A program made the translations under genes and the position numbers. Positions 10,459 through 51,730 of a stretch of DNA of 64,000 bases are shown piece after piece; the stretch's first letter is position 1, and the number at the start of each line of letters is the position of its first letter. The notes under the pieces are model-generated. The model was not told the DNA's origin. It made no database searches and saw only the letters and a list, made by a program, of their open reading frames with translations. Source of the DNA: a candidate division WOR-3 bacterium (GTDB lineage: Bacteria > Hydrothermota > Tepidihabitantia > Tepidihabitantales > Tepidihabitantaceae); contig JANLFQ010000004.1 in the NCBI GenBank assembly GCA_024653355.1, positions 23,227 through 87,226 of the forward strand, read 5' to 3'.

Positions 10459-10487
10459 TTGATAAAAGTTCTTATTGGCGATATATT
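10459..10487 (+). promoter_or_regulatory. Promoter of the WG-repeat lipoprotein gene
   Basis: TTGATA at 10459-10464, 17 nt, TATATT at 10482-10487. An AAGGAGG site follows just before the start. Apart from this and the divergent promoter, the AT-rich 10185-10547 interval shows nothing I can identify. Confidence 0.65.
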
Positions 10488-10547
10488 AGTATTAGTTATG
10501 CGTTATTTAAAAGGTCGAGCCGTGCTTTTAAGTTAAGGAGGTGAAGG

Positions 10548-11561: not shown

Positions 11562-11580
11562 CCGCTTTTTCTCGCGCCTG

Positions 11581-12099
11581 TTACTTGATAAACCCGTGCG
11601 CCTTGAACCGGGCGATGATTGAGTCCTTGCTCATCAAACCGACATTGCGGGAAAGTTCTTTGCCCGCCGGGTCAAGGAATACGAGGGTCGGAATCGCCTG
11701 AATCCCGAACTTGCGCGCCAGTTCCTGCTCTTTGTCGGTGTCAATGGAACGGACCTCAACCACGCCTTCGAATTCGCGGGCAATCTCTTCAACTATCGGT
11801 GCCTGCTTTTTGCAGGGCGGACACCAGGTAGCAAAAAAGTCCCACAGTTTCGGTAGTTCCGCCGGCTTTTCGCTCTTTTCCGCCACCTTTTCTGGCGGCA
11901 CATTTTCTGCCGGTGTTACCGGTGTGGGTTCTGGGGCAACCGTCGGCGCCGTTGATTCCGGCTTGACCGTTTCGGTTGTTTCCAGGCTCAATGTGTCCTG
12001 AACCGTTGCCGGCGCTTCAGTTTTTGTCGGCTTCTGTCCGCCGCAAACGATAAAAAGCAGTGCGCTGCCGAAGACCAAAAACTTTTTCAACTTCATCAT
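11581..12099 (-). CDS. Thioredoxin-domain lipoprotein
   Basis: This 172-residue periplasmic lipoprotein has lipobox FIVC with Cys19 and a long Pro/Glu/Thr-rich spacer at about 22-72. The thioredoxin domain then carries active site WCPPC near residue 90 and the cis-Pro loop AIPTLVFL. The spacer would hold the redox domain away from the membrane. It could reduce periplasmic disulfides or donate electrons to a peroxidase; the partner is unknown. CcdA of the upstream operon could keep it reduced. It has a GGAG site before ATG 12099, and the second Met is equally possible. Confidence 0.85.
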   Translation of the reverse strand: MMKLKKFLVFGSALLFIVCGGQKPTKTEAPATVQDTLSLETTETVKPESTAPTVAPEPTPVTPAENVPPEKVAEKSEKPAELPKLWDFFATWCPPCKKQAPIVEEIAREFEGVVEVRSIDTDKEQELARKFGIQAIPTLVFLDPAGKELSRNVGLMSKDSIIARFKAHGFIK

Positions 12100-12309
12100 T
12101 CACAACTCCTTTTCAACGGATTTACAGTTACCATTTTTATCATCTACTACCTTACCTTTTTTATCAAGGGCATATCGTTTAACGCTCCCAGCATAAAAGA
12201 AAACTTCGCAAACTAAAATATTGTTAATTTTCATCATCACAATTTAATGTAATGCGGCCTCAATTTAATGTCAAGCAGAAGCCGGGGAGTGCCGAACGAA
12301 GTTAAACTT

Positions 12310-15959: not shown

Positions 15960-17948
15960 TTATCTTAAAAGCACAAACCGCACCGGTGGTGCTTCTTCTC
16001 TTCCCAGGCGGGCAAAGTAAACCCCGGCTGGTGCTTGATTGCCCTGCCGGTCAATACCGTTCCACTCCACCACTTCCCTGCCGGATTGCACTTCCACCAC
16101 AAGGCGACCGGTGTAGTCGTAAATCTCAATCGGTGTCGTGCCTGCCCTGTTCAGCATAAACCGCACCCGGTTTCTTGCCGGATTGGGCTGAACCACCTGA
16201 AGCCGCACCACAACCCCTACCTCATCCTCTAAACCAACCGGTGTCACATAGCAACTGTCCAAAATCCAGTTGTCCGGGTCCGGGGTAATACTCAACGGCT
16301 CCTGTGCCAGTGTAAATGTGTCAACTACCAGTGTGTCCTGAACATCCAGTGTGGTCAGCACACTTTCGCCCGCACAGTTAAACCTGATTGGCAGCGGAAT
16401 GTGGAACAGCGGTGCCGAGTTGGTGTCATTGCGCTGATAAAGGTTGATTACCACCTGATAAGAGTCTGCCCGCACACTCTTTGTCCAGTATAAATAAAAT
16501 TTCGGATAGCCCCGGTCATAAACCCATTCGTTGAAAAAGGTGTCTAAATCAACCCCGGTGACCATTTCTACTATCCGCTGAAAATCTTCGGTCGAAACCG
16601 TGCCGTATTTAAACGAATCACCATAGACCCGCAACGCTTGAAAGAATCTACCCGGACTCTGCCAGGCGGTGTCACCGGTAATGAACTGGAGCATCCGCAA
16701 TATCCACGAACCCTTGCAATAGACAATCCCGTAGTTGTAGATTTCACTCCAGGGCGGGTTGTAAATTGGAAAGTCTCGGCTGCGGTGCTGGGTGAAGTAC
16801 TGCCGCGCCTTACCCGCGATGTAGTTCTGAAAGTAGTTCCTGCCGTTCAAATGCCCCATATAAAGACACTCTGCCCAGGAGGCAAACCCTTCATTGAGCC
16901 AGACATCCGCATAACCGATATGGGTAACCATATCGCCCCACCACATATGAGAAAGTTCATGACAGATAGTCGCCTCACCGCCCCCACCAAGATAACTGGT
17001 GTGAATCATCACCTGGGTCTGATGCTCCATTCCACCCCAGGGAAACCCATAATAGCCCGGCACCATGCCAAACCGCTCAAACGGATAAGGTCCAAACCGA
17101 TTGGTGTCGCTGAAGTAAACCATCATATCCGGTACCATCCGAAAACCGGTTCGGGTCGCCGCCGAATCCCGGGGCCACATAAAGTACATCAATGGAACGG
17201 TGTCACCATTCGGGCCGACAACCGCTGTATCCCAGTAGGCGAACCTTGAAGCGGAAAAGGTCATCAGATAGGTGGCGATCGGGTAGGGATGACGCCACCA
17301 GTAGGTCTTTTTTCCACCCGGGGCACTGGTTATCGAATCGAGCATGCCATTGGCGCAAGCCTGAAATGTGTCCGGCACTGTGATATTGATCTCACAACCC
17401 CGCTCCGCCTTATCGCTGGGCCAATCCCAGCCGGCAAACCAGTAGTGGTTGTCACGCGGACAGCCACAGGTCATCGCATGGGCGTGCAAAACGGTTGGCG
17501 GTCGGGCAAAGAAAAAACCCCGCTGCGGCGCGCTCGCCTCCCGATGGAAAAAGATGTCAATTGCCGTGGACTCACCCTGCACCAGCGGGCTATCAAGTTG
17601 AATTAAAAGCCGTTCCGGCGGTGTGGAAAAAACAAGCGGCACCGGACCCCTTTTCACCGAATCGCAAATCAGCCCGGCAAAGTCCATACTGAATGTGTCA
17701 AGAGATGCAACATTACTCTTTATTGTCACCCTTTCAAAACAGCGGTAACTGGCATCACTCATCGGTAGGTCAAAGTCCAGCCGGTAATGCCGGACATCAT
17801 AAGCGTGTAGCGACTCGGCAAAAGTCGTGCCGGGCGGGAACAGAGTTTGCCGCCCGTGCTCGGGTATAAATTGGCTAAATTCGGTCTGGGCAAAAATCGC
17901 CCCGCACAAAAGCAAAATAACGGGCGCAGCGCAAATAAATCTTTTCAT
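15960..17948 (-). CDS. Secreted M1-family (gluzincin) aminopeptidase with C-terminal sorting domain
   Basis: This 662-residue zinc metallopeptidase removes N-terminal residues from peptides outside the cytoplasm. It has a signal peptide (MKRFICAAPVILLLCGAIFA). The exopeptidase motif is GGMEHQ at 305-310, the zinc site HELSH at 330-334, with the third ligand Glu353 in NEGFASWAE. The C-terminal tail (PNPARNRVRF, YDYTGRLVVEV, PAGVYFARL) is a Por-type sorting domain that would send it to the surface. An ATG further upstream would extend it into asd; I chose 17948 because an AGGGGG ribosome site and the signal peptide fit there. It follows asd by 10 nt. Confidence 0.9.
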   Translation of the reverse strand: MKRFICAAPVILLLCGAIFAQTEFSQFIPEHGRQTLFPPGTTFAESLHAYDVRHYRLDFDLPMSDASYRCFERVTIKSNVASLDTFSMDFAGLICDSVKRGPVPLVFSTPPERLLIQLDSPLVQGESTAIDIFFHREASAPQRGFFFARPPTVLHAHAMTCGCPRDNHYWFAGWDWPSDKAERGCEINITVPDTFQACANGMLDSITSAPGGKKTYWWRHPYPIATYLMTFSASRFAYWDTAVVGPNGDTVPLMYFMWPRDSAATRTGFRMVPDMMVYFSDTNRFGPYPFERFGMVPGYYGFPWGGMEHQTQVMIHTSYLGGGGEATICHELSHMWWGDMVTHIGYADVWLNEGFASWAECLYMGHLNGRNYFQNYIAGKARQYFTQHRSRDFPIYNPPWSEIYNYGIVYCKGSWILRMLQFITGDTAWQSPGRFFQALRVYGDSFKYGTVSTEDFQRIVEMVTGVDLDTFFNEWVYDRGYPKFYLYWTKSVRADSYQVVINLYQRNDTNSAPLFHIPLPIRFNCAGESVLTTLDVQDTLVVDTFTLAQEPLSITPDPDNWILDSCYVTPVGLEDEVGVVVRLQVVQPNPARNRVRFMLNRAGTTPIEIYDYTGRLVVEVQSGREVVEWNGIDRQGNQAPAGVYFARLGREEAPPVRFVLLR

Positions 17949-17958
17949 CCGCCCCCTT

Positions 17959-18948
17959 TTAAGACTTAAACAGAAGTTCGGCAATCTGCAACGCGTTGGT
18001 TGCTGCCCCCTTGTAAAGGTTGTCGGCAACAATCCAGAGGTTGAGGTCGTTTTCGGTTGCCCCTGGCCGCACCCGACCGACAAACACATCGTTCTTTCCC
18101 CGGCAGAAAAGCGGTGTGAGCAACTCATTAACCTGTCGCAACACCACGCCGGGCGCCTTTTTCAGTAACTCCAGCGCTCTTTCCCAATTTACCTTCTTCT
18201 CAAACCGGCAGGTAACCGCAAGGCTGTGTCCAACCGTAATCGGAACCCGGACACAGGTTGAGTTGATTTTTAAGTCCGGTAGCCCCAAAATTTTCTGGGT
18301 TTCCTTAACGGTCTTTTGCTCCTCACCACTGTTTCCCGTCCCATCACCACCCCCAATCCAGGGAATCACATTGTCCACAATCTGAACCGGAAACGGGCTC
18401 TCTTCCGTATCGGGTTGCCTCTGAACACAGAAAAACTCACTCTCGTAATAAAGTTGCTCGAGCGCTGCCCGACCCGCACCCGATACCGACTGATAAGTTG
18501 CCAGAAAGATTTCCTTTAATCCAAACTCCTGATGCAGCGGGTTAACCGCGACCACGAGCGGAATTGTTGTGCAGTTGGGGTTGCCGATGATGTTTTTGTG
18601 CCCTTTAAGCGTTTCAGGATTGACCTCCGGCACAACGAGCGGCACATCCTCTTTCAACCGGAACTCGCTTGACTTGTCAATCACAGGACAGAACTTCGCC
18701 ACCTCGGGCACAAACTGCCGCGCCAGTTCATTCTCCACGCAGAAAAAGGCGATGTCCAGCCCTTTAAAGCCGTCAACCGAAAGTGGTCCAACCTCAATCT
18801 CCTTATCCCGAAACAACACCTTTTTCCCGGCGCTCTTCTCCGAGGCGAAAAGCCTTAACTCCTCAATCTTATAAGGTCCTGACTCCAGAAGACTGATCAG
18901 CGTATCGCCAACCAGCCCGGTTGCACCAGCAATACCAACCTTCTTCAT
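17959..18948 (-). CDS. asd: Aspartate-semialdehyde dehydrogenase
   Basis: This 329-residue enzyme makes aspartate-semialdehyde from aspartyl phosphate with NADPH, for lysine/diaminopimelate, threonine and methionine synthesis. The Rossmann motif GIAGATGLVG is at residues 4-13. The catalytic cysteine is in GNPNCTTIPL near residue 130, and SVSGAGRAALEQL and the active-site histidine segment (VPITVGHSLAVTCR) are present. Length is normal. It has its own promoter, whose -35 box overlaps the galE stop codon, and the ATG sits 8 nt after the -10 box without a ribosome site. The M1 peptidase gene follows, probably on the same mRNA. Confidence 0.93.
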   Translation of the reverse strand: MKKVGIAGATGLVGDTLISLLESGPYKIEELRLFASEKSAGKKVLFRDKEIEVGPLSVDGFKGLDIAFFCVENELARQFVPEVAKFCPVIDKSSEFRLKEDVPLVVPEVNPETLKGHKNIIGNPNCTTIPLVVAVNPLHQEFGLKEIFLATYQSVSGAGRAALEQLYYESEFFCVQRQPDTEESPFPVQIVDNVIPWIGGGDGTGNSGEEQKTVKETQKILGLPDLKINSTCVRVPITVGHSLAVTCRFEKKVNWERALELLKKAPGVVLRQVNELLTPLFCRGKNDVFVGRVRPGATENDLNLWIVADNLYKGAATNALQIAELLFKS

Positions 18949-21423: not shown

Positions 21424-22578
21424 GTGAGTTCTACCCCGGCGGCCGCTAACACTCGAACGGTTCCGTTAAAACAAATCGCCCTGACCTTCTTTAAAGTCGG
21501 CTTGATTGGTTTTGGTGGCGGACCGGGCATGCTCGCTATCATCCGTCAGGAGGTGGTCCAAAAGAAAAGGTGGATTGGCGATAAAGAACTGGCAACCGCG
21601 GTCGCGCTCGGCCAGATGTTACCCGGTCCGTTTGTGTCCAATTACGCCGAATACATCGGCTATCGGCTTGCCGGCTTAAAGGGTATGGTCTGCGCTGCCG
21701 TTGCCCTGCTCCTGCCCGGTTTTATCCTGATGTGTTGTCTGGGCTTTCTCTATTTCCGCTACGGCACGCTACCTTTGATTTCCAAAATCTTTGCCGGTAT
21801 TCAGCCGGTGGTTGCCGGCATCCTCGCCTGGGCAACTTGGTCTATCGGCAGGTCAAACATCAAAGATTTAAAGGGGGTTGTGATAGGCATCATCGCCGCC
21901 ATCGCACTCTTTTTCAGGGGCGATGTCCTGCTTGTCGTTTTGGGTTGCGGGGTGCTGGGAATAGTACTTTCCAATATCAACATCAGGAAGAAACTGCCGG
22001 TTCTCGGCTTGAACCCGTTTTTGCTTTTTATCTTCACCGCCTCCGCTCTGGGAACTTCGATTCAGAAGGCGGGAGAACTGGCGCTGATTTTCTTCAAAAT
22101 GGGTACTGTCATCTTTGGGGGTGGGTTCGCCGCTATTCCCTTCCTCCAACATGAGGTGGTCCAGTTGCGGGGCTGGCTCACAATGCCGGAGTTTGTCGAT
22201 GCGGTGGCGCTGGGCCAGATGACGCCGGGACCGGTGGCAATTATGGCAACATTCATCGGTTTCAAGGTGCTCGGCTTTACCGGTGCCATTATCGCGACTG
22301 CCGGAACATTTCTGCCCTCGGCCCTGATGCTTCTCGGTTTGATTCACGCCTACAACCGGATTAAGGAAAACCAATGGGCACAGGCGTTTCTCAGCGGGGT
22401 TATGCCCGCGGTCTGCGGTATGCTTCTGGTGTCAACCGTTTTAATCGCCCAAAACACCTTAACCGCTCTTTTGCCCGCCGTCCTTGCCATACTCACCTTA
22501 ATTCTCCTAATGCGTTTTCGGATTGAACCAATCTGGCTGATTCTCGCCGGCGCGCTTTTCGGACTGATTCTACCTTGA
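21424..22578 (+). CDS. chrA: Chromate transporter, long two-domain form
   Basis: This 384-residue inner-membrane protein is a fusion of two homologous CHR domains, each of about six helices. Each half has the signature GxIGFGGGPGMLAIIRQEVV (about residues 23-42) or its second-half copy VIFGGGFAAIPFLQHEVV, followed by a GQMLPGP or GQMTPGP motif. ChrA proteins export chromate with proton exchange; in strict anaerobes the real substrate may be sulfate-like or another anion. The start is GTG 21424, directly after a promoter. Stop and the next gene's -35 box overlap. Confidence 0.88.
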   Translation: MSSTPAAANTRTVPLKQIALTFFKVGLIGFGGGPGMLAIIRQEVVQKKRWIGDKELATAVALGQMLPGPFVSNYAEYIGYRLAGLKGMVCAAVALLLPGFILMCCLGFLYFRYGTLPLISKIFAGIQPVVAGILAWATWSIGRSNIKDLKGVVIGIIAAIALFFRGDVLLVVLGCGVLGIVLSNINIRKKLPVLGLNPFLLFIFTASALGTSIQKAGELALIFFKMGTVIFGGGFAAIPFLQHEVVQLRGWLTMPEFVDAVALGQMTPGPVAIMATFIGFKVLGFTGAIIATAGTFLPSALMLLGLIHAYNRIKENQWAQAFLSGVMPAVCGMLLVSTVLIAQNTLTALLPAVLAILTLILLMRFRIEPIWLILAGALFGLILP

Positions 22579-22611: not shown

Positions 22612-25600
22612 ATGAAAAAATCGGCACCCGGCATTATCGTTTTTTTATCCCTGTTCCCGCTCTTAACCTTCGGTGCCAGTTCAACCCGCTTAATCTCTGA
22701 GACGCCAACTCTTGTCGAGTTTGAGTTCCGTTTTGACTCCCTTGACATTACCACCGGAATGACCAGCATCAATTTACCCGATGCCGACCGCATCGCCCAG
22801 CCTGGCGCGCCTGACCTGCCAGGCAAAATCGTGTTGATCGGTGTACCTCAGGAAGGAGAAGTCCGACTCCGATACTCGGTGTCCCGTACCAACCGCTGGA
22901 CTGGAGTTGAAATTCAACCGATGCCGGCATTGAGTGAAACACCGGTTAGTCCGGGCGCAATGTTTGAAAAAGATGAGTACTGGCCCAGCGCCCCGGCAGA
23001 ACTGTTAAGCATTGAAACAGTCCGCAACATCAGGGTCGCCCGCATCCAACTGAACCCAATTCAGTACAATCCGGTCCGCAAAACGGTGTTGATTCACCAA
23101 CAACTTAACTGTCAACTCATCTTCAGCCACCCCGCCCGGCAAAATGTCAAGCCCGACCCTCTGGATTCGGTTTTAACCCGCATGCTGCTGAACGGCGGCA
23201 CCGCAATCCACTGGAAAACATTCGGGCCGGAGAAAGACTCGTTCAACTTCTTCAATCGGTTCCCGGTCTGGTGTCAGGTGAAAACCGAGACCACCGGCAT
23301 CTACAGAATTACCCCGGACGATTTAAAGAACGCCGGCTTTGAACCTACAACAATCGACCCGCGCACCTTCCGACTCTTCACCATCGGTCCCTACACCCTT
23401 AACGGTCCTTATCCGGACACGATGGTTGAGGTCGCCATCGATGTTTTGGGTGCGGAGGATGGCAGGTTTGACTCCCGGGACTACATTCTCTTTTATGCCC
23501 GGGCACCATCGTACTGGAACGACTCACTGAGTGAATGGCATACCAACTACTACACCCGGTATCGGGTTTTCTGGCTCACCTGGGGTTTGGGGCAAGGAAA
23601 AAGGATAACCCAGGTTCCGGTTGCAAACCCTGCAACCCCGCAAACCCGTGCCCCGAACCTAATCCGCCTGGAAGAAGATAAACTTTGCCCGGCGCGCTCC
23701 GGCCTTCTCTGGATATGGGAGCGCTACTCCAACGCCGGTGCGCCGAGCGCAACTTTTTACCGTGAACTCAACCTGCCCAACCGCGACACCATAAATAAAC
23801 TTACCGTCCTTTTTTACGCCTGGACCGATAAAACATCGGAAACCTATCGAGCGGTTATCCATTTAAACAACACCGTTCTGGACACGGTTGCAATCGCTGC
23901 CACCAACCAGAACTGCCCGCCCAATCTGTTCACATTTGAAAACCTGCCCCTGATTGCTGCGGCACCGGGCAATAAAAAGGACACGCTCGCGGTTACGCTC
24001 CTTGGCTCGGCTGATGTTTATCTTGACTACATTGAGATCGATTACACCCAGAACCTTACGGTTAACAGAAATCAACCTCTGCTACAATTTTATACCCGGA
24101 TGGGCGGCGCATTCGCAATCAACGGCGTTGGAGAAGAGTTTAACCTCTTCGATGTTACAAACCCGTTCCAACCCCAGCGCATCCAGTTCAGTTTACAGGG
24201 AAACCAGGCACAATTCTTTTGGAACAACTTTGGCAACTTCTTCGGCACCACGCCCGCCGGATTCCGCACTCCGGTGTCAATTAAAAAACGCCAGCCCGGC
24301 AACCTGCGCACACCGCAGGAAAAAGCCGACTACTACATCATCTGCCCGGACGAATTCCTTCCCATCGCCCGGCTCTTTGCCCGCTACCGTGATAACAACA
24401 TACCGGGTATCAGTGCGGCGCGCGCCCATGCGGTTCCTTTGAGCCAAATCTACGACGACTACACCTTCGGGATGGAAGAACCGGGCGCAATTAAAACATT
24501 TTTTGCCGCAAAACAACCCGCCTACGGGCTCCTTGCCGGTGATGCCACCTACGACTACAAAGATAACTTAGGCATCGGGAAATTCCCCGGCGTGCCCGCC
24601 TACGAAATCGGTTTTGACCTTGACTACGAAGTCTACAACCCTTATGTCAAAGCCCTTGACGCCTGGTTTGCCGACTTTGATGGCGGCGGGTCAAGTCCGG
24701 ACATGATTCTCGCTCGGGTTACCTGCCGCACCCCGCAAGAGCTGCGTCAGTTTCTTGATAAAGTAAAAAGCTACGAAACCCAGGAACTCGGGCTCTGGGC
24801 AAAACGGTTCCTATTGCTCGGTGACGACGAGTACCTCGGGGACCCCTCAAAAAAAGAGAGCTCAATCCACATTGAAGGCTGCGAACGCATCGCCCCCCTT
24901 GCCGGAAATCAGCTTGACCTTGTCAAAGTATATTTAACCGAATACCCCCTTGAAGCAATTAAGTCAAAACCCAAAGCTGAAGCCGAACTTTTGCGTCAGC
25001 TAAACCTCGGTGCCCTTTTCTGGTGTTTCTTCGGGCATGGCGCCGGTTTTCAGTTGTGTCATGAACGGGCGTTCAATGTTGAAGACATCCCGCTCGTCAG
25101 CAACGGCAGCCGGAATCCCCTTGCCTTCTTTGGCTCCTGCGGTGTCGGCCGCTTTGACGACACCAAATACGAGGCGATTGCCGAAGAACTGGTGCGAACC
25201 GCGGCGGGATGCATCGCCACCATCGGCGCCTCAAAGGCAACCTACTCCGGCTCCAATGAAAACTTTGCCCGCAAACTTTTTACCCATCTTATTGCCCATC
25301 CTGAAGAACCAATTGGTCCGGCGTTCTATGAAGCCTGGTTCCAGAGCAACCTCTACATCCTGTTTGCCGACCCGGCAACAAAACTGCGGCTGCCCCAGAT
25401 TGGCACCCGCCCGACCGTAACTCCGGACACTTTTTACCCCGGTGGCCGCATTCAGTGGCAAATCACACCGGATTTAACCCAAGGCTACTTTGAAATCCGG
25501 GCAACCGAAGCCGCCCGGGAAAGGTACTACTTCTCAGATGCCGCCAACATCACCTACACCCTTCCAGGACAGGAAATATTTCGGGGAGCAGGCAGATTCC

Positions 25601-26460
25601 AGAGCAGCACCTTCTCGGGCACCTTCATCGTTCCCAAAACCGACTATCCGGACACGGTTGTTGTTGGCAATGGCAGATATGTTCGCAACCGCGCAACCTG
25701 TTTAATCTCTGCAATCATCTGGAACAGGTCTGATGCCAGAACCTTGCTCTCCGCGCCTCTCTACCTCAGCCCAAACCCGGCGCCAACAACCGACACCATC
25801 CCTCCCGAAATCACCCTCCGCGCCGACAATGTCTTCCTCAGATTAAAAGACACTACCTATGTTCCAAAACGGTTTACCCTGCACGGCACCGTTACCGACC
25901 CATCGGGCGTTCTGCTTTTACCCGACCCCACTTACGGTTTGAAATTTTACCTGAGTGACCCGGGCAAGCAAATCCGGTTAAACGACCGCTTCACCTACGA
26001 CGACAACTCCGCCACCACTGGCAGATTTTCTTACCCCCTGACCCTCGAGGGAACATCAGACTCTCTTGTCGTGCTGGTTGCCGACAACTTCCTCAATCGC
26101 CGTATCGGCACTTACTACCTCAAAACCGACCTTCGTGAACAACTCCGCATCGACACCTGCCTTGTCTACCCAAACCCGGTAACAGACCGTGCCTTATTCA
26201 CATTCAGGCTTACGCGGCCTGCCCGGGTGACGATAAAAATCTTCACCATTTCCGGCCGGCTGGTACGCACCATTGGGCCTCAGGAGTGCAGTTTTGGCTA
26301 CAACCAGATTGAATGGGATGGCTGTGACCGCGATGGCACCCCGCTTGCCAACGGTATCTACCTTTACAAAATCGACGCCCAAACCGGGGACCTGCTCAGC
26401 GGCAACCAGTTACAACCCCGCTCCGCCACTCACCGCGACAAATTCATCGTTCGCCGGTAA
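22612..26460 (+). CDS. C25-family cysteine peptidase, PorU/gingipain-like
   Basis: This 1282-residue secreted protein has a signal peptide (residues 1-22) and a gingipain-type propeptide region (about 25-190). A beta-rich region is followed by the C25 caspase-like domain (about 590-930). His809 in CFFGHGAG and Cys843 in FFGSCGVGRFDD form the likely dyad. GRFDD after the cysteine, and FADPATKLRLP at the end of the domain, are closer to PorU, the sortase of type IX secretion, than to gingipains. The C-terminus is a FlgD-Ig-like domain (VYPNPVTDRALF, NGIYLYKID). It may process the sorting-domain proteins of this window. Confidence 0.82.
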   Translation: MKKSAPGIIVFLSLFPLLTFGASSTRLISETPTLVEFEFRFDSLDITTGMTSINLPDADRIAQPGAPDLPGKIVLIGVPQEGEVRLRYSVSRTNRWTGVEIQPMPALSETPVSPGAMFEKDEYWPSAPAELLSIETVRNIRVARIQLNPIQYNPVRKTVLIHQQLNCQLIFSHPARQNVKPDPLDSVLTRMLLNGGTAIHWKTFGPEKDSFNFFNRFPVWCQVKTETTGIYRITPDDLKNAGFEPTTIDPRTFRLFTIGPYTLNGPYPDTMVEVAIDVLGAEDGRFDSRDYILFYARAPSYWNDSLSEWHTNYYTRYRVFWLTWGLGQGKRITQVPVANPATPQTRAPNLIRLEEDKLCPARSGLLWIWERYSNAGAPSATFYRELNLPNRDTINKLTVLFYAWTDKTSETYRAVIHLNNTVLDTVAIAATNQNCPPNLFTFENLPLIAAAPGNKKDTLAVTLLGSADVYLDYIEIDYTQNLTVNRNQPLLQFYTRMGGAFAINGVGEEFNLFDVTNPFQPQRIQFSLQGNQAQFFWNNFGNFFGTTPAGFRTPVSIKKRQPGNLRTPQEKADYYIICPDEFLPIARLFARYRDNNIPGISAARAHAVPLSQIYDDYTFGMEEPGAIKTFFAAKQPAYGLLAGDATYDYKDNLGIGKFPGVPAYEIGFDLDYEVYNPYVKALDAWFADFDGGGSSPDMILARVTCRTPQELRQFLDKVKSYETQELGLWAKRFLLLGDDEYLGDPSKKESSIHIEGCERIAPLAGNQLDLVKVYLTEYPLEAIKSKPKAEAELLRQLNLGALFWCFFGHGAGFQLCHERAFNVEDIPLVSNGSRNPLAFFGSCGVGRFDDTKYEAIAEELVRTAAGCIATIGASKATYSGSNENFARKLFTHLIAHPEEPIGPAFYEAWFQSNLYILFADPATKLRLPQIGTRPTVTPDTFYPGGRIQWQITPDLTQGYFEIRATEAARERYYFSDAANITYTLPGQEIFRGAGRFQSSTFSGTFIVPKTDYPDTVVVGNGRYVRNRATCLISAIIWNRSDARTLLSAPLYLSPNPAPTTDTIPPEITLRADNVFLRLKDTTYVPKRFTLHGTVTDPSGVLLLPDPTYGLKFYLSDPGKQIRLNDRFTYDDNSATTGRFSYPLTLEGTSDSLVVLVADNFLNRRIGTYYLKTDLREQLRIDTCLVYPNPVTDRALFTFRLTRPARVTIKIFTISGRLVRTIGPQECSFGYNQIEWDGCDRDGTPLANGIYLYKIDAQTGDLLSGNQLQPRSATHRDKFIVRR

Positions 26461-26480
26461 AACAATATTTAAGATAATGC

Positions 26481-26508
26481 TTGACATCAGGTTAAGAAAT
26501 TATAAAAT
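26481..26508 (+). promoter_or_regulatory. Promoter of the lipoprotein/OmpA gene pair
   Basis: TTGACA at 26481-26486, 16 nt, TAAAAT at 26503-26508. An AAAGGAGG ribosome site follows before TTG 26535. Confidence 0.7.
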
Positions 26509-26534
26509 TTTACAAATTAAAAAGGAGGACTGCT

Positions 26535-27110
26535 TTGCGTCGAAACCTTTTCGTCCTTTTACTCGTCTGTGCCGCAATGTTTACAATGGTCTCCTGTCAA
26601 AGGGAGAATGCCCTACGGGTTGTATCAATTCAATCGCCCTATTACTCAGACCTGATTGACCGAGGTATTGAACGCGACCCGGAAACCGGTGAACCAGAAG
26701 AAATTGAAGTAATTCCCACCGATGTTGCATCCGTTCAATTTCAGTACGTAGAAATCGGCCTCGGGCTACCCACCTGGACACCTTATCAGGCTCATATTGA
26801 GAAGGCAACCATCACCTTCAAACGCATTGGTGGCGACGAATTGAGTGAACCGTTACCTCAGATTGTTGTCCCGTGCAAACTCGTGGTCCAGTCAGACCCG
26901 AGCGGCAAAAAAACTGTCACTGGTAATTTCGAACTTCTCTCATCCTGGTACAAAGAAGAGTATCTAATGGGCTACGACTACCTTATTCTCGAAGCAACGG
27001 TTAAGTTCTCGGGCTTTGACGATGCATCGGGGAAACCAATTGAAGCCACCAATAAAATGGAGGTTTCGGTCTCAGACTTCTACGACGACCCGACTCGTAT
27101 CGGGCAATAA
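26535..27110 (+). CDS. Lipoprotein of unknown function, 191 residues
   Basis: It starts at TTG 26535, placed 7 nt after an AAAGGAGG site. The lipobox is MVSC with Cys18. The mature domain opens with RVVSIQSPYYSDLIDRG and has an even beta-strand pattern (ATITFKRIGG, TVTGNFELLSSW, LILEATVKFSGFD), resembling small lipoproteins found with OmpA-type cell-envelope proteins. I do not know the family. It lies 73 nt before the OmpA-domain gene, with a stable hairpin in between, and the two may act together in the envelope. Confidence 0.65.
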   Translation: MRRNLFVLLLVCAAMFTMVSCQRENALRVVSIQSPYYSDLIDRGIERDPETGEPEEIEVIPTDVASVQFQYVEIGLGLPTWTPYQAHIEKATITFKRIGGDELSEPLPQIVVPCKLVVQSDPSGKKTVTGNFELLSSWYKEEYLMGYDYLILEATVKFSGFDDASGKPIEATNKMEVSVSDFYDDPTRIGQ

Positions 27111-27132
27111 ACTTTTGTTCTAAAAGATTCTT

Positions 27133-27160
27133 GCGGCACGGGAAGGCAAACCTGTGCCGC
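27133..27160 (+). terminator. Intergenic hairpin (attenuator or processing element)
   Basis: A 10-bp stem with one G-U pair (GCGGCACGGG with CCTGTGCCGC) and an 8-nt loop. It is followed by TTGAAC rather than a U run, so it is a weak terminator at best and may instead set the ratio of the two flanking genes. Confidence 0.45.
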
Positions 27161-27183
27161 TTGAACTAAAAAGGAGGTAAAAA

Positions 27184-29148
27184 ATGAAATTCTCCCGTAT
27201 TGTCTTGGCGATAGCCTGTTTGACACCGGCACTCTTTGGCTACACCGGATTCGGTGGCGGCAAAGGGTTATTCCGAGTTCAGGATGCCCAAACTGAAGAG
27301 GCGGGTTTAAACATCGCGCTTCAAATAATAGGCCGGCGCCCGTCTTATCCTGACAATGAGGAATATCAAAAGGGCTATATTGCTGACCTGATTGCTCCAA
27401 CTTTACACTATACTCCAATCTCAACCCGCTTTATCGGGGCGGAAATATTCGCCACCTGGGGTGGCATATTCCAGTATGCGAAAATCGGCGAGAAGATGTA
27501 TGGAATGGGACTGCACGACCTCAAAGCCGGGGCAAAACTGTCAATTCCGTATCTGCCGGTCTTAAAAGTTGGTGGCACCGCATCGTACACCTTCAAGTTT
27601 CGCGACCTACCAGAACCGCCTTATTACTGGACCGACGCATCAGCAATGCCTTACGACACCTTGTACTGGGCAGGACTGGCAACACTGCGGTTCCAGGACC
27701 TTATCTCTGTTGCCCCTAATCTGATTTTCAACTACGGTAAATCCGGCTCCTGGACAAACTACGGCACCGGCATTGAACTGGCAGCCGAAGGCTTAGCACT
27801 TTTTGCCGAACTCACCTCCCGCCAGCCGGAAAACTCCACCGGTATATTTGACACCGACAATGGCATTGTTCGCCTGACACCCGGAGTCACCTTTGGCTCA
27901 CCGCGCGGCTTTGCCCTTTCACTGGGCTACACCTTTAGTTTGACCGAAGGTATTCCTAATGAGGTGATTTTCGGTATGAACATCGCCACTCCTTTCTTCC
28001 GTAAAGCACCGGTTGTTTATGGTATACTCACGGGCCGTGTTATTGACGCATCAAGCCAGAATCCGGTTGTTGCGACGCTCGAATTCCCGGACAATCCAAA
28101 ATTAAAACCCGTTATTGCCGACGCCGCAGGACTTGTTTCCCTGAAAAAACTGCCGGTGGGTGTTCTTAAGGTCAGGGTAACGGCTGAAGGGTATCGGCCA
28201 CTTGAAACATTTGTCAACATCGAAACCAAACCAACCGGTCCAATCCAGTTTGAACTTCATCCTCTTATCACCTACGGTATCATCGCCGGCACTGTTACCG
28301 ACGCTCGCACCGGTAAACCATTATCTGCGCTCCTTACCTTTGCCGAAGCCGACATGGGGACAATTGAGGTTGATCCAGCAACTGGCGCCTTCCGCAAAGA
28401 CAACATCCCGGTTGGCACTTACACCATCACTGCTAAAGCCGACGGTTACTTCCCCGCGACCGTAACGGTAAAAATTGAAGAAAATCGAATAACCAACCAA
28501 CCGTTCATCCTTACCCCGCTCGCCGTAAAATCAATTGTCACCGGCGTAATAACCGACCGGGGCACAGGCAAACCTTTACCGGCAAAGGTCACCTTCAAAA
28601 ACGCCACCGACGGTACAATTTTCACCGAGATTGACAATGACCCGGAGACCGGTGTTTACTCCCACGAACTCCCTGCCGGACCTTATGCGGTCGTTGCCCA
28701 TTCTGAAGGCTATATCGACCAGTCTGCGGCACTCGTCGTTGAAGAAGGCAAACCGGCAAAACACGACTTCGCACTGGTTAAAGTGGGAACAACTGTAACT
28801 CTGAAAGGTATTTACTTCGACTTTAACAAAGCGACTATAAAGTTCCCCGAATCCCAGGAAGCGCTGCAGGCGGCATACCAGATTCTTAAAGATAACCCGA
28901 CAATCAAAGTGGAAATCCAGGGCCACACCGACAACATCGGCTCCGACGAATACAATCAGAAACTTTCGGAACAACGTGCCTGGGCGGTCGTAAACTACCT
29001 TGTGCAACAGATGGGTGTTGATGCCGCCCGGCTCATCGCCCGCGGTTATGGTGAATCTATGCCCAAGGCTTCAAACGAGACGCCCGAAGGTCGCGCCCTT
29101 AATCGCCGGGTTGAATTTGTGGTTATCGGCGAAATCGAAAACAGGTAA
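27184..29148 (+). CDS. Outer-membrane protein with three carboxypeptidase-regulatory-like repeats and OmpA domain
   Basis: This 654-residue protein has a signal peptide (residues 1-19) and a barrel-like region (about 20-275) rich in alternating strands. Three carboxypeptidase-regulatory-like domains (about 277-540) each open like YGIIAGTVTDARTGKPL. A C-terminal OmpA peptidoglycan-binding domain (540-654) has YFDFNKATIKFPES, QGHTDNIGSD and LSEQRAWAV; the Asp and Arg that hold diaminopimelate are present. It would link the outer membrane to peptidoglycan. Carboxypeptidase-like plus OmpA domains also occur in PorE of type IX secretion, but the propeller and TPR parts are absent. An AAGGAGG site precedes the ATG. 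Confidence 0.82.
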   Translation: MKFSRIVLAIACLTPALFGYTGFGGGKGLFRVQDAQTEEAGLNIALQIIGRRPSYPDNEEYQKGYIADLIAPTLHYTPISTRFIGAEIFATWGGIFQYAKIGEKMYGMGLHDLKAGAKLSIPYLPVLKVGGTASYTFKFRDLPEPPYYWTDASAMPYDTLYWAGLATLRFQDLISVAPNLIFNYGKSGSWTNYGTGIELAAEGLALFAELTSRQPENSTGIFDTDNGIVRLTPGVTFGSPRGFALSLGYTFSLTEGIPNEVIFGMNIATPFFRKAPVVYGILTGRVIDASSQNPVVATLEFPDNPKLKPVIADAAGLVSLKKLPVGVLKVRVTAEGYRPLETFVNIETKPTGPIQFELHPLITYGIIAGTVTDARTGKPLSALLTFAEADMGTIEVDPATGAFRKDNIPVGTYTITAKADGYFPATVTVKIEENRITNQPFILTPLAVKSIVTGVITDRGTGKPLPAKVTFKNATDGTIFTEIDNDPETGVYSHELPAGPYAVVAHSEGYIDQSAALVVEEGKPAKHDFALVKVGTTVTLKGIYFDFNKATIKFPESQEALQAAYQILKDNPTIKVEIQGHTDNIGSDEYNQKLSEQRAWAVVNYLVQQMGVDAARLIARGYGESMPKASNETPEGRALNRRVEFVVIGEIENR

Positions 29149-34590: not shown

Positions 34591-35060
34591 AAAAACTGAG
34601 TGAACTTGCCGTGGGCGACTGGGGTGTTATCCAGGCGGTAGAAGGAAAACCGGCACTCCGGCGCCGGCTGGAAACAATGGGCTTTATTCCGGGGACCCGG
34701 GTCCGGGTTTCCCGTTGTGCACCGATGGGCGACCCCCGCGCCTATGAACTTTTGGGTTACTGTATCTCGCTCCGTCAGGAAGAGGCAGAAATGGTGATTG
34801 TAGAACCGATAAAAGTTTACCCATTAAGCGAAGCACCCCCGGGCAGATTTAAAATTGTTGGGATTTCCGGCGGCCGCGGCTTAGCCCAGAAACTTGCCAA
34901 CCTCGGGATTCTGCCTGATGTGGTTGTTGCCCGAAAAGACAACGGGCAAACCGGTCCCGTTACGGTTGAAATTCAGGGGCAGATGGTCCAGATCGGTCGA
35001 GGAATGGCGCGGCGCATAACAGTAATTGCCGAAACCGATGAAGTCCAAAAGACCGATTAA
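34587..35060 (+). CDS. feoA: Tandem FeoA-domain protein
   Basis: This 157-residue cytoplasmic protein has two SH3-like FeoA domains, at about 1-75 (LSELAVGDWGVIQAVEG, RRRLETMGFIPGTRVRV) and about 80-150 (LSEAPPGRFKIVGISGG, AQKLANLGILPDVVV). Usual FeoA is a single domain of about 75 residues, so this is a duplicated form. It supports Fe(II) uptake by FeoB. I start at ATG 34587, which overlaps the regulator's stop codon, because the longer frame reads through the regulator gene. Its 3' end overlaps feoB by 23 nt. Confidence 0.88.
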   Translation: MKKLSELAVGDWGVIQAVEGKPALRRRLETMGFIPGTRVRVSRCAPMGDPRAYELLGYCISLRQEEAEMVIVEPIKVYPLSEAPPGRFKIVGISGGRGLAQKLANLGILPDVVVARKDNGQTGPVTVEIQGQMVQIGRGMARRITVIAETDEVQKTD

Positions 35061-37062
35061 AGTCGCCATCGCCGGCAACCCGAACTCCGGCAAAAGTACC
35101 ATCTTCAACGCCCTCACCGGCGGCACGGTTGCGGTCGGCAACTGGCCCGGGGTCACGGTGGAAAAACACGAAGGTCGCTCAATCTATCAGGGCCACGAAG
35201 TCATTGTTGTTGACCTGCCGGGCACCTATGCCCTTGACGCCTGGACAATTGACGAACGCATCGCCCGCAACTTTCTCATCAACGAAAAACCGGATGGAGT
35301 GGTTGCGGTAGTTGATGCCGCCAACCTTGAACGCAACCTCTATCTTGTCATCCAGCTTCTGGAAATTGGCGCCCGGGTGGTTGTCGCCTTAAATATGATG
35401 GACATTGCCCGGGCAAAAGGAATTGAGATTGACATCAATCGCCTTGCTCAACTGCTGGGCGTCCAGATTGTACCGCTTGTCGCTGCCCGGCTTGAAGGAA
35501 TCGAACAGTTGCGGGCGGTGATTCATAACCTTGGCCGGGAAGAAAAGCCCACAAAACCTTTGCGTATTGATTACGGCGAAGAAATCGAGCGTGATATCGC
35601 CCGGATAATGAGTGCCCTACCCGCAAACCTGCCGGAGAACGAGCGCCGCTGGCAGGCGCTGAAACTTTTGGAAACCGGCGCCGCGGCAACATCTCCCTCT
35701 CCTCAGGATCGTGCTACTTTTGAACAAGCGACCACCGTTGCCGCTGCCGCCCGCGCCGCTTTGAGCCAGCGCCATCGGCACGACGCCCAGAGCGCCATCA
35801 TTGAACGGCGCTACGGCTTCATCCGGGGGGTATTGAAAGAGTGCGTTCGGCAAACACCAAAAATCCAACGCTCGCTGGACCTGTCAGAAGTCATCGACTC
35901 CATCGTGCTCAACCGCGTTTTGGGCATCCCGCTCTTCTTTTTGATGATGGCGTTAACCTTCTTTGTGGTCTTTGCTCTTGGGACACCTTTAAGCCAGCTC
36001 CTTGACAAACTATTTAACCTGCTTGCCCGGGGCGTAGCAACCTTGCTGACCAACCTCACCGCACCCGAATGGTTTACATCCCTGATTGCCGACGGACTCA
36101 TCATCAGCATTGGCACGGTTCTGAAATTTATTCCGAACATAATCATCCTTTACATTATCCTTGCGCTGCTCGAAGACTCCGGTTATATGGCTCGGGCGGC
36201 ATTTCTTGTGGACAAATTTATGCACGCAATGGGATTGCATGGCAAATCGTTCATTCCCCTTCTTTTGGGCTTTGGCTGCAATGTGCCGGCGGTTCTTTCC
36301 GCCCGGACGCTCGAAGCGCGCAAAGACCGCATCCTCACCGTTTTGACCATTCCCCTCATCTCCTGCTCTGCCCGACTGCCAATCTACATCCTGTTCGCCG
36401 GTGTTTTCTTCAACCGCCTCCGATTCCTTGTCGTGTTTTCCCTTTACCTATTAGGCGTACTCATCGCCGTTGCCACCGCCCGGCTCCTTCGCCACATCCT
36501 CTTCCGTCACGAAGAAGCACCCTTAATTATGGAACTCCCTCCCTACCACACGCCCACCTGGCGCACCGTTTTCCATCCTGCCTGGATGCGCACCGCGCTG
36601 TTCATCCGGCGCGCCGGGTATGTTATTGCGCCCGCAGTGATAGTCGTCTGGCTCCTTGGCAGACTGCCCTGGGGAGTTCCCAACGCTTCTGCCCAGAGTT
36701 TCCTCGGCAAGATTGGCAACCTTATCGCCCCGCTCTTGAAACCGGCCGGCTTCGGCTACTGGTGGTCCGCAGTAGCGCTCCTTGCCGGCATCGTGGCAAA
36801 AGAAATCGTTGTCAGCACCCTGGCAACCATCCACGCCAGCAACCCTCAAGGGTTAACCGGTGTCCTGCAGGCTAACTTCACCCCCCTTTCCGCCTATGCC
36901 TTCATGGCTTTTTCCCTGCTCTACTTTCCCTGCGTTGCAACCTTTGCCGCAATTCGCCGTGAACTTGGCTGGCAACTTGCAATCTTTACCGCACTCTACA
37001 CCCTCCTCATATCTTGGGTAACCGCTACCGCCATTTACCAGATAGGCAGGCTGTTCATATGA
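35038..37062 (+). CDS. feoB: Ferrous iron transporter FeoB
   Basis: This 674-residue inner-membrane Fe(II) transporter has an N-terminal GTPase domain with G1 GNPNSGKST (about residues 11-19), G2 in NWPGVTVEK, G3 DLPGTYAL and G4 NMMD. A helical spacer domain follows, then about 10 membrane helices with the Gate motifs (LLGFGCNVPAVLSAR and ISCSARLPIYILF, with the conserved cysteines). Length is standard. Two in-frame ATGs 12 nt apart are possible; 35038 is favoured because the family starts close to the G1 loop. It overlaps feoA and the following M23 gene by short coupled overlaps. Confidence 0.95.
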   Translation: MKSKRPIKVAIAGNPNSGKSTIFNALTGGTVAVGNWPGVTVEKHEGRSIYQGHEVIVVDLPGTYALDAWTIDERIARNFLINEKPDGVVAVVDAANLERNLYLVIQLLEIGARVVVALNMMDIARAKGIEIDINRLAQLLGVQIVPLVAARLEGIEQLRAVIHNLGREEKPTKPLRIDYGEEIERDIARIMSALPANLPENERRWQALKLLETGAAATSPSPQDRATFEQATTVAAAARAALSQRHRHDAQSAIIERRYGFIRGVLKECVRQTPKIQRSLDLSEVIDSIVLNRVLGIPLFFLMMALTFFVVFALGTPLSQLLDKLFNLLARGVATLLTNLTAPEWFTSLIADGLIISIGTVLKFIPNIIILYIILALLEDSGYMARAAFLVDKFMHAMGLHGKSFIPLLLGFGCNVPAVLSARTLEARKDRILTVLTIPLISCSARLPIYILFAGVFFNRLRFLVVFSLYLLGVLIAVATARLLRHILFRHEEAPLIMELPPYHTPTWRTVFHPAWMRTALFIRRAGYVIAPAVIVVWLLGRLPWGVPNASAQSFLGKIGNLIAPLLKPAGFGYWWSAVALLAGIVAKEIVVSTLATIHASNPQGLTGVLQANFTPLSAYAFMAFSLLYFPCVATFAAIRRELGWQLAIFTALYTLLISWVTATAIYQIGRLFI

Positions 37063-38360
37063 TTCCGCCACCGCCAAAACCAGCCCCGGGTCAAAACACA
37101 AAAACCCTTCCTTACTGGTTACTTATTATACCTGCCCTCATCGCCACCCTGCTTGCCCTCCTTCTGTTCCGGCATAAACCTTCAACGCCCAGAGTCTGCG
37201 GTCCGGAAATACCCAGTCCGGACTCAACCTACTACGCCGGTGCCATCCTGAGCGAAAACGAACCCCTTACCCATCTCCTGCGTCGTTTCTGCCTGCCCGA
37301 GACAACCATCAACGCCATCTACGCCGCACTACAGCGCACCGACTTCGACTTTCGCAAAATGAAACCCGGTGACTCTGTTTCTTTCTACTACCACGGCTTG
37401 AACCTCGCGCGCATCGACTACCACCCGAACTTAATTACAACTTACGAAGTATCTTTCGATTCGGTGCACGGTTTTATTGCCCAGAAAATAATCAAACCGG
37501 TTGACACCGTTAAGTATGTCATCGTCGGCACCATTGAAAACTCCCTCTGGAACTCTTTACTGAAAATGGGCGGTACCCCGCAACTTGTTGTCAACTTTGC
37601 CGAAATCCTGCGCTACGATATCGACTTCTTTACCGAATGCAACAACGGCGACACCTTCGAACTCCTTGTTGACCAGTTGAATGTTGAGGGTAAAACCTAC
37701 ACCTATGGCCGAATCTACGCCGTACACTACAAAAGCAAAACCGAAAATGTTTACGGTTTCTACTTCCAGGACCCATCAGGCCGGTGGGACTACTACAACG
37801 AAAAGGGCCAATCTTTGCGCAAGACCGTACTCCGTTCTCCGCTCTCCTTTGCCAAAGTGTCATCCTACTTCGGAATGCGGTTCCATCCCATTTTGCGCAT
37901 TTATCGGCCCCATCAAGGTGTTGACTATGTTGCGCCGCGTGGCACACCGGTCAGCGCCATTGCGGACGGCACTGTTACTATGGCGCGCTGGTGTGGTGGT
38001 TATGGCAACCTGGTGGAAATCAAACATTCGGGCGGGTTAGTTTCACGCTATGGCCATCTATCCAGTTACGGTCCGGGTATAAAAGAAGGCAGATTTGTCC
38101 GCCAGGGCGCAACTGTAGGTTATGTCGGAGCAACCGGTCTTGCAACCGGTCCTCATCTCCATTTTGAAATTCGCCAGGGTGGCAAACCGGTCAACCCGTT
38201 AAAGGTCATTCCACCCCGGGCAGAGCCGGTTGCAAAAAAATACCAAGAACTATTTAACGAAACTAGAGATTATTACCTATCTCTAATAAATAAGGCTAAG
38301 AATTTAAACCATCAAGAACGGGATAATACTACTTATATACCAATATCTATTTCTAAATAG
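37059..38360 (+). CDS. M23-family peptidoglycan endopeptidase
   Basis: This 433-residue, membrane-anchored zinc peptidase cuts peptidoglycan cross-links. It has a proline-rich cytoplasmic start, one membrane helix (about residues 18-40), an OapA/LysM-like region with LLRRFCLPETTINAIYAAL, and the M23 domain near residues 270-385. The zinc ligands are in FGMRFHPILRIYRPHQGVDY and GPHLHFEI. Length resembles MepM/YebA-type enzymes. ATG 37059 overlaps the feoB stop, so the enzyme is in the iron operon by position, without a known link. The 3' end overlaps the convergent TonB receptor gene by 28 nt, and its last 40 residues are AT-rich. Confidence 0.88.
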   Translation: MIPPPPKPAPGQNTKTLPYWLLIIPALIATLLALLLFRHKPSTPRVCGPEIPSPDSTYYAGAILSENEPLTHLLRRFCLPETTINAIYAALQRTDFDFRKMKPGDSVSFYYHGLNLARIDYHPNLITTYEVSFDSVHGFIAQKIIKPVDTVKYVIVGTIENSLWNSLLKMGGTPQLVVNFAEILRYDIDFFTECNNGDTFELLVDQLNVEGKTYTYGRIYAVHYKSKTENVYGFYFQDPSGRWDYYNEKGQSLRKTVLRSPLSFAKVSSYFGMRFHPILRIYRPHQGVDYVAPRGTPVSAIADGTVTMARWCGGYGNLVEIKHSGGLVSRYGHLSSYGPGIKEGRFVRQGATVGYVGATGLATGPHLHFEIRQGGKPVNPLKVIPPRAEPVAKKYQELFNETRDYYLSLINKAKNLNHQERDNTTYIPISISK

Positions 38361-51728: not shown

Positions 51729-51730
51729 CC

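What the first reader, a model, noticed from the sequence alone, without database searches (positions are those of the whole stretch)
22612..29148. PorU-like peptidase followed by a lipoprotein and an OmpA/carboxypeptidase-like protein: possible type IX secretion-like locus
The C25 protein has the Cys-x-x-GRFDD context of the PorU sortase rather than of gingipains. It is followed by an OmpA protein with carboxypeptidase-regulatory-like repeats, a domain mix also used by PorE. Three clear sorting-domain cargo proteins are encoded in this window (3, 7485, 15960).
Basis: partly seen in the sequence, partly recalled or inferred. Interest (0 to 1): 0.5.

Follow-up and report, generated by a model that had tools for sequence, protein, structure and literature searches.

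The report
PorU-type secretion sortase with gingipain-like prodomain
A little-known group of bacteria carries a surface-protein secretion system best known from Bacteroidota, and this gene encodes one of its two tail-cutting enzymes, which looks like a hybrid of the known enzyme and its protease cousins; the membrane-protein genes next to it are only neighbours.

Summary
The window belongs to a 1.88 Mb WOR-3 (Caldifarciminota) genome. ORF 22612-26460 is a PorU, the type IX secretion (T9SS) sortase. It passes the PorU equivalog cut-off narrowly (423.8 vs 420 bits), groups with P. gingivalis PorU apart from the genome's gingipain-like C25 proteins, and keeps the His/Cys dyad. The genome also encodes SprA/Sov (473.5 bits), a second PorU beside a PorV/PorQ-family gene, and many sorting-tail proteins. 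SprA was found in 61 of 61 genomes (own and 60 relatives), PorU in 55. So "PorU" and "T9SS present" hold.

The "locus" does not. The lipoprotein + OmpA pair is an independent unit with its own promoter-like site, found beside PorU only in this genus. The OmpA protein is not PorE: no TPR or propeller was found.

New points: WOR-3 PorUs carry a gingipain-type prodomain that solved PorU lacks (6 of 8 scanned). The window's family usually has two PorUs, PorU-A beside PorV and PorU-B (this one) after a chromate-transporter gene. The Arg proposed for sortase activity is usually Lys, and Thr in this genome's PorU-A.

GldL/GldM were not found in 61 genomes, but the GldM search also missed 34 of 47 SprA-positive control genomes, so a missing motor is not shown.

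The parts
22612..26460 (+). PorU-B: type IX secretion system sortase / CTD signal peptidase (1282 aa), second of two PorU paralogues in this genome
   Evidence: NF033707 423.8 bits vs cut-off 420; best PDB match 6za2 PorU E 1.5e-17; tree
22729..23142 (+). N-terminal gingipain-type prodomain (residues 40-177), not part of the solved P. gingivalis PorU
   Evidence: PF08126 48.1 bits vs 22; PDB gingipain R2 prodomain E 3.6e-6 and Kgp prodomain E 1.2e-4 for residues 22-198 alone
24331..25386 (+). C25 catalytic domain (residues 574-925)
   Evidence: PF01364 180.2 bits
25036..25038 (+). catalytic His809 codon (FGHG)
   Evidence: alignment; His at this column in 41 of 41 WOR-3 PorU rows and in 6za2
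25138..25140 (+). catalytic Cys843 codon (GSCGVGRFDD)
   Evidence: alignment; Cys in 41 of 41 WOR-3 PorU rows and in 6za2
25234..25236 (+). Lys875, in the column of P. gingivalis PorU Arg722 (proposed sortase Arg)
   Evidence: Arg722 proposal from PMC4560394 passages
26164..26388 (+). C-terminal sorting domain of PorU-B itself (residues 1185-1259)
   Evidence: TIGR04183 26.3 bits vs 23; FlgD_ig 44.5 bits vs 27, PF18962 21.6, below its cut-off 27
21424..22578 (+). chromate transporter family gene, conserved upstream neighbour of PorU-B
   Evidence: PF02417 304 bits vs 28.6; on the same strand within three genes upstream in 14 of 14 B-type rows
26481..26508 (+). promoter-like site (TTGACA-16-TAAAAT) between PorU-B and the lipoprotein gene
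   Evidence: 11 of 12 consensus matches, in a region where 9 such sites were found and 5.3 expected by chance; the TTGACA and ATTATA columns are invariant in 3 of 3 genus members
26535..27110 (+). lipoprotein gene (191 aa, lipobox-like VSC), partner of the OmpA gene; not part of a PorU unit
   Evidence: a homologue lies beside the OmpA gene in 14 of 20 OmpA-gene loci, this one included
27184..29148 (+). OmpA-family envelope protein: N-terminal region of about 277 aa (probably an outer-membrane barrel, not shown), three CarboxypepD_reg domains, OmpA peptidoglycan-binding domain
   Evidence: a match at E<=1e-10 in 61 of 61 genomes, own included

Best explanation
ORF 22612-26460 is PorU-B, one of two PorU-type sortases of a type IX secretion system in a WOR-3 (Caldifarciminota) bacterium. 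Inferred working: PorU-B goes through Sec, is kept inactive or helped to fold in the periplasm by a gingipain-type N-terminal prodomain, and crosses the outer membrane through SprA/Sov using its own C-terminal sorting domain. On the surface its Cys843/His809 dyad cleaves the sorting domains off cargo such as the tailed C25 proteins and the kelch protein at 7485-10184, and probably links the new C-terminus to an envelope glycan. Shown by sequence: PorU family membership, intact dyad, prodomain, own tail, SprA, a PorV/PorQ-family protein beside PorU-A, tailed cargo, and an old PorU-A/PorU-B duplication. Inferred: secretion route, latency, cleavage, transfer to a glycan, and any division of labour between A and B. 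The lipoprotein + OmpA pair downstream is a separate envelope unit.
For: PorU model 423.8 bits (PorU-B) and 430.4 (PorU-A) over a cut-off of 420, while 10 of the genome's 12 other C25 matches, all that were scanned, score 35 to 88. PDB: PorU-B and PorU-A match 6za2 PorU (E 1.5e-17, 8.7e-17) and no gingipain catalytic chain, while both of two other C25 proteins tested match gingipain R and not PorU. Tree: 41 WOR-3 PorU rows + 6za2 form one group (98/87) outside the 11 other C25 rows of this genome that were in the tree (11 of 12). His/Cys in 41 of 41. SprA 473.5 vs 200 bits; SprA in 61 of 61 genomes at E<=1e-10, 56 over cut-off; PorU in 55 of 61 at E<=1e-60, 27 over cut-off, with only 10 candidates scored per genome. 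PorV/PorQ-family gene directly after PorU-A in 9 of 10 A-type rows. Tail model passed by 8 of 12 scanned non-PorU proteins of this genome. Prodomain found by Pfam in 6 of 8 WOR-3 PorUs scanned.
Against: The PorU cut-off is passed by only 3.8 bits here, and by 27 of 61 genomes. The PorV-like protein passes the PorV/PorQ family cut-off (152 vs 90) but not the PorV equivalog one (80 vs 250). The proposed sortase Arg is Lys here, and 6 of 12 non-PorU C25 rows have Arg in that column, so the column neither proves nor excludes sortase activity. GldL and GldM were not found. The 6za2 row is a long branch (2.32) and the only named PorU in the tree, so its place is less sure than the support says. Six of 61 genomes had SprA but no PorU match at E<=1e-60. 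Two structure models were poor (mean pLDDT 51.7 and 51.1), so there is no fold evidence. No experiment.
Confidence: 0.8

Rival explanations
1. It is a secreted gingipain-like protease (ordinary T9SS cargo), and PorU-A is the only sortase. The gingipain-type prodomain and the own tail would fit a cargo protease.
For: Prodomain matches gingipain R2 and Kgp prodomains and 5 of 8 gingipain-like C25 proteins of this genome also have it; it has a tail like cargo; no PorV gene beside it.
Against: Catalytic and middle regions match PorU, not gingipains; PorU-A and PorUs of four other families scanned carry the same prodomain; B-type copies form a group (93/89) inside the PorU group.
Confidence: 0.08
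2. PorU-A and PorU-B divide the work: the window copy keeps a basic residue at the Arg722 column and does transpeptidation (anchoring), while PorU-A of genera g1 and g5, with Thr, only removes the tail (or each serves its own cargo set).
For: Column is Lys in 14 of 14 B rows; Thr in 5 and Lys in 4 of 9 A rows with a letter; separate, conserved neighbourhoods for A (PorV) and B (transporter); both dyads intact; 14 of 18 genomes of the family have two or more PorU matches at E<=1e-60.
Against: The role of Arg722 is only proposed (PMC4560394 passages); cargo tails were not sorted into classes here; 6 of 12 non-PorU C25 rows also have Arg there.
Confidence: 0.3
3. The three genes form a T9SS operon in which the OmpA protein replaces PorE as the peptidoglycan anchor.
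For: CRD and OmpA domains match the last third of the PorE model (116.6 vs cut-off 600); adjacency in this genus.
Against: No TPR or propeller found; PorU is beside the pair in only 2 of 20 OmpA-gene loci, the window's and that of one congener; about 106 kb apart in G006 and G010; own promoter-like site; in G001 a TonB receptor-like gene lies between.
Confidence: 0.04
4. WOR-3 has a T9SS outer-membrane half (SprA, PorU, PorV) that runs without the GldL/GldM proton motor, or with an unrelated one.
For: Over cut-off: GldM 0 of 61, GldL 0 of 61; at E<=0.1 only weak matches in 3 and 10 genomes (best E 0.054 and 0.022); GldM_1st none at E<=1 in the own genome, while SprA is in 61 of 61.
Against: The same GldM search is over cut-off in only 13 of 47 SprA-positive genomes drawn from the phylum of G062, the genome of a record titled Ignavibacteria, so it cannot show absence; the GldL and GldM_1st searches had no positive control. 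The window's genome is 98% complete in 6 contigs.
Confidence: 0.2

Closest known systems
PorU of Porphyromonas gingivalis (PDB 6za2), T9SS C-terminal signal peptidase/sortase
   Same: C25 family, His/Cys dyad, PorU-type N-terminal and catalytic regions, own tail; found with SprA/Sov in the genome
   Different: about 200 extra N-terminal residues with a gingipain-type prodomain (6za2 residue 38 aligns with residue 219 here); Lys in the Arg722 column; two copies in the genome; no PorV gene beside this copy
Gingipains RgpB and Kgp
   Same: C25 domain, related prodomain, tail
   Different: catalytic region closer to PorU; PorU middle region present; outside the genome's gingipain-like rows in the tree
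NCBIfam NF052324, putative second T9SS sortase PorU2
   Same: idea of a second PorU-like sortase
   Different: 135.3 (PorU-B) and 138 bits (PorU-A) against a cut-off of 450; both fit PorU (NF033707) far better
PorE (PG1058)
   Same: CRD followed by OmpA C-terminal domain
   Different: no TPR and no beta-propeller found; three CRDs; beside a T9SS gene only in this genus among the loci examined

Membership tests
PorU (T9SS sortase) | NCBIfam equivalog NF033707 over 420 bits | tested here: met
   423.8, 423.4 in the genome search
PorU (T9SS sortase) | C25 His/Cys catalytic dyad | tested here: met
   His809, Cys843; 41 of 41 WOR-3 PorU rows
PorU (T9SS sortase) | groups with known PorU and not with gingipain-like C25 | tested here: met
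   tree 98/87 with one named PorU (6za2); no named gingipain row in the tree, the genome's own gingipain-like C25 stand in
PorU (T9SS sortase) | own C-terminal sorting domain | tested here: met
   TIGR04183 26.3 vs 23; PF18962 21.6 vs 27 not met
PorU (T9SS sortase) | conserved Arg 32 residues after the catalytic Cys (Arg722) | tested here: not met
   Lys here; Arg in 1 of 40 WOR-3 PorU rows with a letter; a proposed, not proven, feature (PMC4560394 passages)
PorU (T9SS sortase) | porV next to porU (as in P. gingivalis, PMC5445135 passages) | tested here: not met
   not for this copy; for PorU-A a PorV/PorQ-family gene follows in 9 of 10 A rows
PorU (T9SS sortase) | tail cleavage and transpeptidation | not testable with these tools
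   needs biochemistry
Type IX secretion system | SprA/Sov translocon | tested here: met
   TIGR04189 473.5 vs 200; 61 of 61 genomes at E<=1e-10
Type IX secretion system | PorV | tested here: inconclusive
   PorV/PorQ family cut-off met, PorV equivalog not
Type IX secretion system | GldL/GldM (PorL/PorM) motor | tested here: inconclusive
   not over cut-off in 61 genomes, but the GldM control is over cut-off in only 13 of 47 SprA-positive genomes and GldL had no control
Type IX secretion system | GldK/GldN ring, PorW/SprE, PorT, PorZ, PorQ, PorP | not tested
Type IX secretion system | cargo with sorting tails | tested here: met
   8 of 12 scanned non-PorU proteins over the TIGR04183 cut-off; window ORF 7485 44.5 bits
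PorE | TPR + beta-propeller + CRD + OmpA_C | tested here: not met
   only CRDs and OmpA found; NF052230 116.6 vs 600; architecture from PMC5053529 (abstract and passages)

The most novel reading that the evidence does not exclude
WOR-3 runs a divergent T9SS: two zymogen-type sortases that keep a gingipain-like prodomain (perhaps the state before Bacteroidota PorU and gingipains parted), with split roles (one anchors, one only cuts), attached to a SprA/PorV outer-membrane half that lacks the GldL/GldM motor or uses another one.
Probability: 0.12. Interest if true: 0.75.

Novelty: new variant of a known kind. Interest (0 to 1): 0.45.

Why it matters
T9SS is usually described as a Bacteroidota machine with possible members in some other phyla of the same superphylum. 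Here its translocon and sortase are found through 61 genomes of a WOR-3 class, with a sortase that carries the prodomain of its protease cousins. If the prodomain keeps the sortase latent, it would give a natural system to ask how PorU is held inactive until it reaches the surface, and whether PorU and gingipains descend from one pro-enzyme. Two sortases in one genome, differing at the proposed sortase Arg column, would let cutting and anchoring be tested apart.

Tried and rejected
Reading the OmpA gene as PorE: rejected. Reading the three genes as one operon: rejected. Reading the protein as a gingipain: rejected for the core, kept for the prodomain. Claiming a motor-less T9SS: set aside after the control showed that the GldM model misses 34 of 47 SprA-positive genomes. 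The two genomes tried first as controls were negative and no use: G062 (record titled Ignavibacteria) has SprA but no GldM match, and G061 (record titled Latescibacterota) gives the same SprA contig, positions and scores as relative G027, so it is apparently the same WOR-3-class genome under another name. Structure models of PorU-B (residues 200-1282, 7 rows) and of the OmpA protein (2 rows) had mean pLDDT 51.1 and 51.7, so no fold search was run. A census of cargo tails with a home-made profile drifted and did not list PorU-A or PorU-B; it is not used. In the tree locus-derived rows under 150 bits were dropped; the tree holds 41 of the 73 PorU matches, those in the stretches fetched plus the window; one row (G032, L092) is 649 aa long because its hits were merged; one gingipain-like row from G005 was kept; 1 of the genome's 12 other C25 matches (L148) is not in it. 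The PorU-A row of L067 has a gap at the Arg722 column and is left out of that count. Papers: 'type IX secretion' with 'WOR-3' gave 0 papers, 'Caldifarcimin' with 'secretion system' gave 0; in the broader searches only the top of each list was shown, and I saw none there that I could tie to T9SS in WOR-3. Only open-licence papers are held, so prior reports elsewhere are not excluded.
Full report
What was given.

The observation. The three ORFs are there, on one strand: 22612-26460 (1282 aa), 26535-27110 (191 aa), 27184-29148 (654 aa). The first has a C25 domain at residues 574-925 and a tail domain at the end; the third has three CarboxypepD_reg stretches and an OmpA domain; the second matches no family. 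Of the three 'clear cargo' ORFs in the window, one passes the T9SS tail model (7485-10184, 44.5 vs 23 bits), one is just under it (15960-18128, 22.8) and one (3-1613) has no tail match.

Where it is. The window lies in a 1.88 Mb genome of 6 contigs, 98.2% complete. Of 9 related loci in named records, 6 are titled WOR-3, one 'uncultured bacterium', one Latescibacterota and one Ignavibacteria, the last two matching mainly the tail. The Latescibacterota record lies in G061, whose SprA contig, positions and scores equal those of relative G027, so it looks like a member of the same class under another name. NCBI taxonomy now calls WOR-3 Caldifarciminota.

PorU, not gingipain. The genome has 14 C25 matches. 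Only two reach the PorU equivalog cut-off of 420 bits: one on contig C1 (430.4 to 430.9; here PorU-A) and the window's (423.4 to 423.8; here PorU-B). Ten of the other 12 were scanned and score 35 to 88 bits. Against solved structures, PorU-B and PorU-A match P. gingivalis PorU (6za2, E 1.5e-17 and 8.7e-17) and no gingipain catalytic chain; both of two other C25 proteins tested match gingipain R and not PorU. A tree of 54 catalytic domains joins 41 WOR-3 PorU rows and 6za2 (98/87) and leaves out the 11 other C25 rows of this genome and one of G005; 6za2 is a long branch and the only named PorU. The catalytic His and Cys are kept in 41 of 41 WOR-3 PorU rows.

A system, class-wide. SprA/Sov of this genome scores 473.5 against a cut-off of 200. 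In 61 genomes (own and 60 relatives) SprA is found in 61 at E<=1e-10, 56 over cut-off, and PorU in 55 at E<=1e-60, 27 over cut-off (only 10 candidates per genome were scored, so these are lower bounds). A PorV/PorQ-family gene (152 vs 90 bits; below the stricter PorV cut-off, 80 vs 250) follows PorU-A directly. Eight of 12 scanned non-PorU proteins of this genome pass the tail model, and 24 of 42 matches of the PorU model in the genome cover only its tail part.

Two sortases. Within the window's family, 14 of 18 genomes have two or more PorU matches (some genomes are in many contigs, so a few may be pieces of one gene). In the tree the A rows (10, support 100/99) and B rows (14, support 93/89, including three of family f4) are sister groups, so they split before f1 and f4 parted; families f3 and f5 share another duplication. 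These rows are 41 of the 73 PorU matches. A rows have the PorV gene directly downstream in 9 of 10; B rows have a chromate transporter gene (PF02417, three of three scanned) within three genes upstream in 14 of 14. Elsewhere in the class PorU often sits in a set X-Y-Z-PorU(-PorV): X (in 14 of 41 neighbourhoods) is a predicted MA-type peptidase + Omp85 protein, with a propeller found by Pfam in one of the two scanned; Y (17 of 41) starts like a lipoprotein and matched no family in the two scanned; Z (10 of 41) is a family 2 glycosyltransferase. A glycosyltransferase beside a sortase that in P. gingivalis attaches cargo to a glycolipid is suggestive, no more.

A prodomain. Residues 40-177 match the gingipain propeptide (PF08126, 48.1 vs 22 bits), and residues 22-198 alone match the solved RgpB and Kgp prodomains (E 3.6e-6, 1.2e-4); the same stretch of a PorU of another family does so too. 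Pfam finds it in 6 of 8 WOR-3 PorUs scanned, and in 5 of 8 gingipain-like C25 proteins of this genome. The solved P. gingivalis PorU has no room for it: its residue 38 aligns with residue 219 here, and the PorU model match begins at residue 220. I did not test other Bacteroidota PorUs for it. In gingipains the prodomain must be removed for activity (PMC11285876, passages); latency of WOR-3 PorU is inferred from that.

The sortase Arg. Gorasia et al. proposed Arg722, 32 residues after the catalytic Cys, as a sortase feature of PorU (PMC4560394, abstract and passages). In that column WOR-3 PorUs have Lys in 29, Thr in 5, Ala in 3, and Arg, Cys and Gly in 1 each of 40 rows with a letter; B rows are Lys in 14 of 14; this genome's PorU-A has Thr. 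But 6 of 12 non-PorU C25 rows have Arg there, so the column is not specific in this alignment.

The neighbours. The OmpA gene has matches at E<=1e-10 in 61 of 61 genomes, own included (many cover only the repeat and OmpA part). In 14 of the 20 best OmpA-gene loci a homologue of the lipoprotein lies beside it (flanks are short, so some may be missed), and PorU is adjacent in only two of the 20, the window's own and that of congener G002; in the third member of the genus a TonB receptor-like gene lies between. In G006 and G010 the OmpA gene and PorU-B are about 106 kb apart. A promoter-like site lies between PorU-B and the lipoprotein gene, with its core columns invariant in 3 of 3 genus members. 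No TPR or propeller was found, so it is not PorE as defined in PMC5053529 (abstract and passages). Its structure model is confident in the three CRDs, and not in the N-terminal 277 residues.

The motor. GldM: 0 of 61 over cut-off, 3 weak matches at E<=0.1, best 0.054; GldL: 0 of 61 over cut-off, 10 genomes with weak matches, best 0.022; GldM_1st in the own genome: none at E<=1. A search that misses 34 of 47 cannot show absence.

Known and new. [quoted passage not shown] WOR-3 is not named in the passages shown, and the held library has no paper with both 'type IX secretion' and 'WOR-3'. NCBIfam's PorU and SprA models already name these genes, so the parts are known kinds. I file the protein as PorU, a variant with a prodomain and without the proposed Arg, in a T9SS whose motor is still to be found or excluded.

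Noticed in passing
window 48651-61352 (-): Run of large iron-sulfur proteins including two HdrA2-like ORFs (951 and 990 bits, cut-off 1100), one of them fused to an NADPH-glutamate-synthase-like part.
   Followed up: no
L074:3414-6260, L093:3581-6397 and equivalents: Recurrent neighbour of PorU: one protein joining an MA-type peptidase domain, a TolB-like propeller (by Pfam only in L074) and an Omp85 barrel; in 14 of 41 PorU neighbourhoods.
   Followed up: partly
L093:7587-9089 and equivalents: Family 2 glycosyltransferase directly before PorU in several families; possible maker of a glycan acceptor of the sortase.
   Followed up: no
own genome, L143, L144, L149, L153: C25 proteins whose catalytic His column holds Ser, Gln, Trp or Ser: possible inactive C25 relatives, one with kelch repeats; three of the four have tails over the model cut-off.
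   Followed up: no
L081:5858-9979 and 10163-13921: Tandem PorU-B copies in one genome (G017).
   Followed up: no
window 38333-40441 (-), 35026-37062 (+): TonB-dependent receptor-like ORF near a FeoB ferrous iron transporter.
   Followed up: no
G064: GldM over cut-off without a SprA match, an odd combination in the control set.
   Followed up: no
L031 / G061 and G027: A record titled Latescibacterota appears to be the same genome as a WOR-3-class relative (identical SprA contig, positions and scores).
   Followed up: partly
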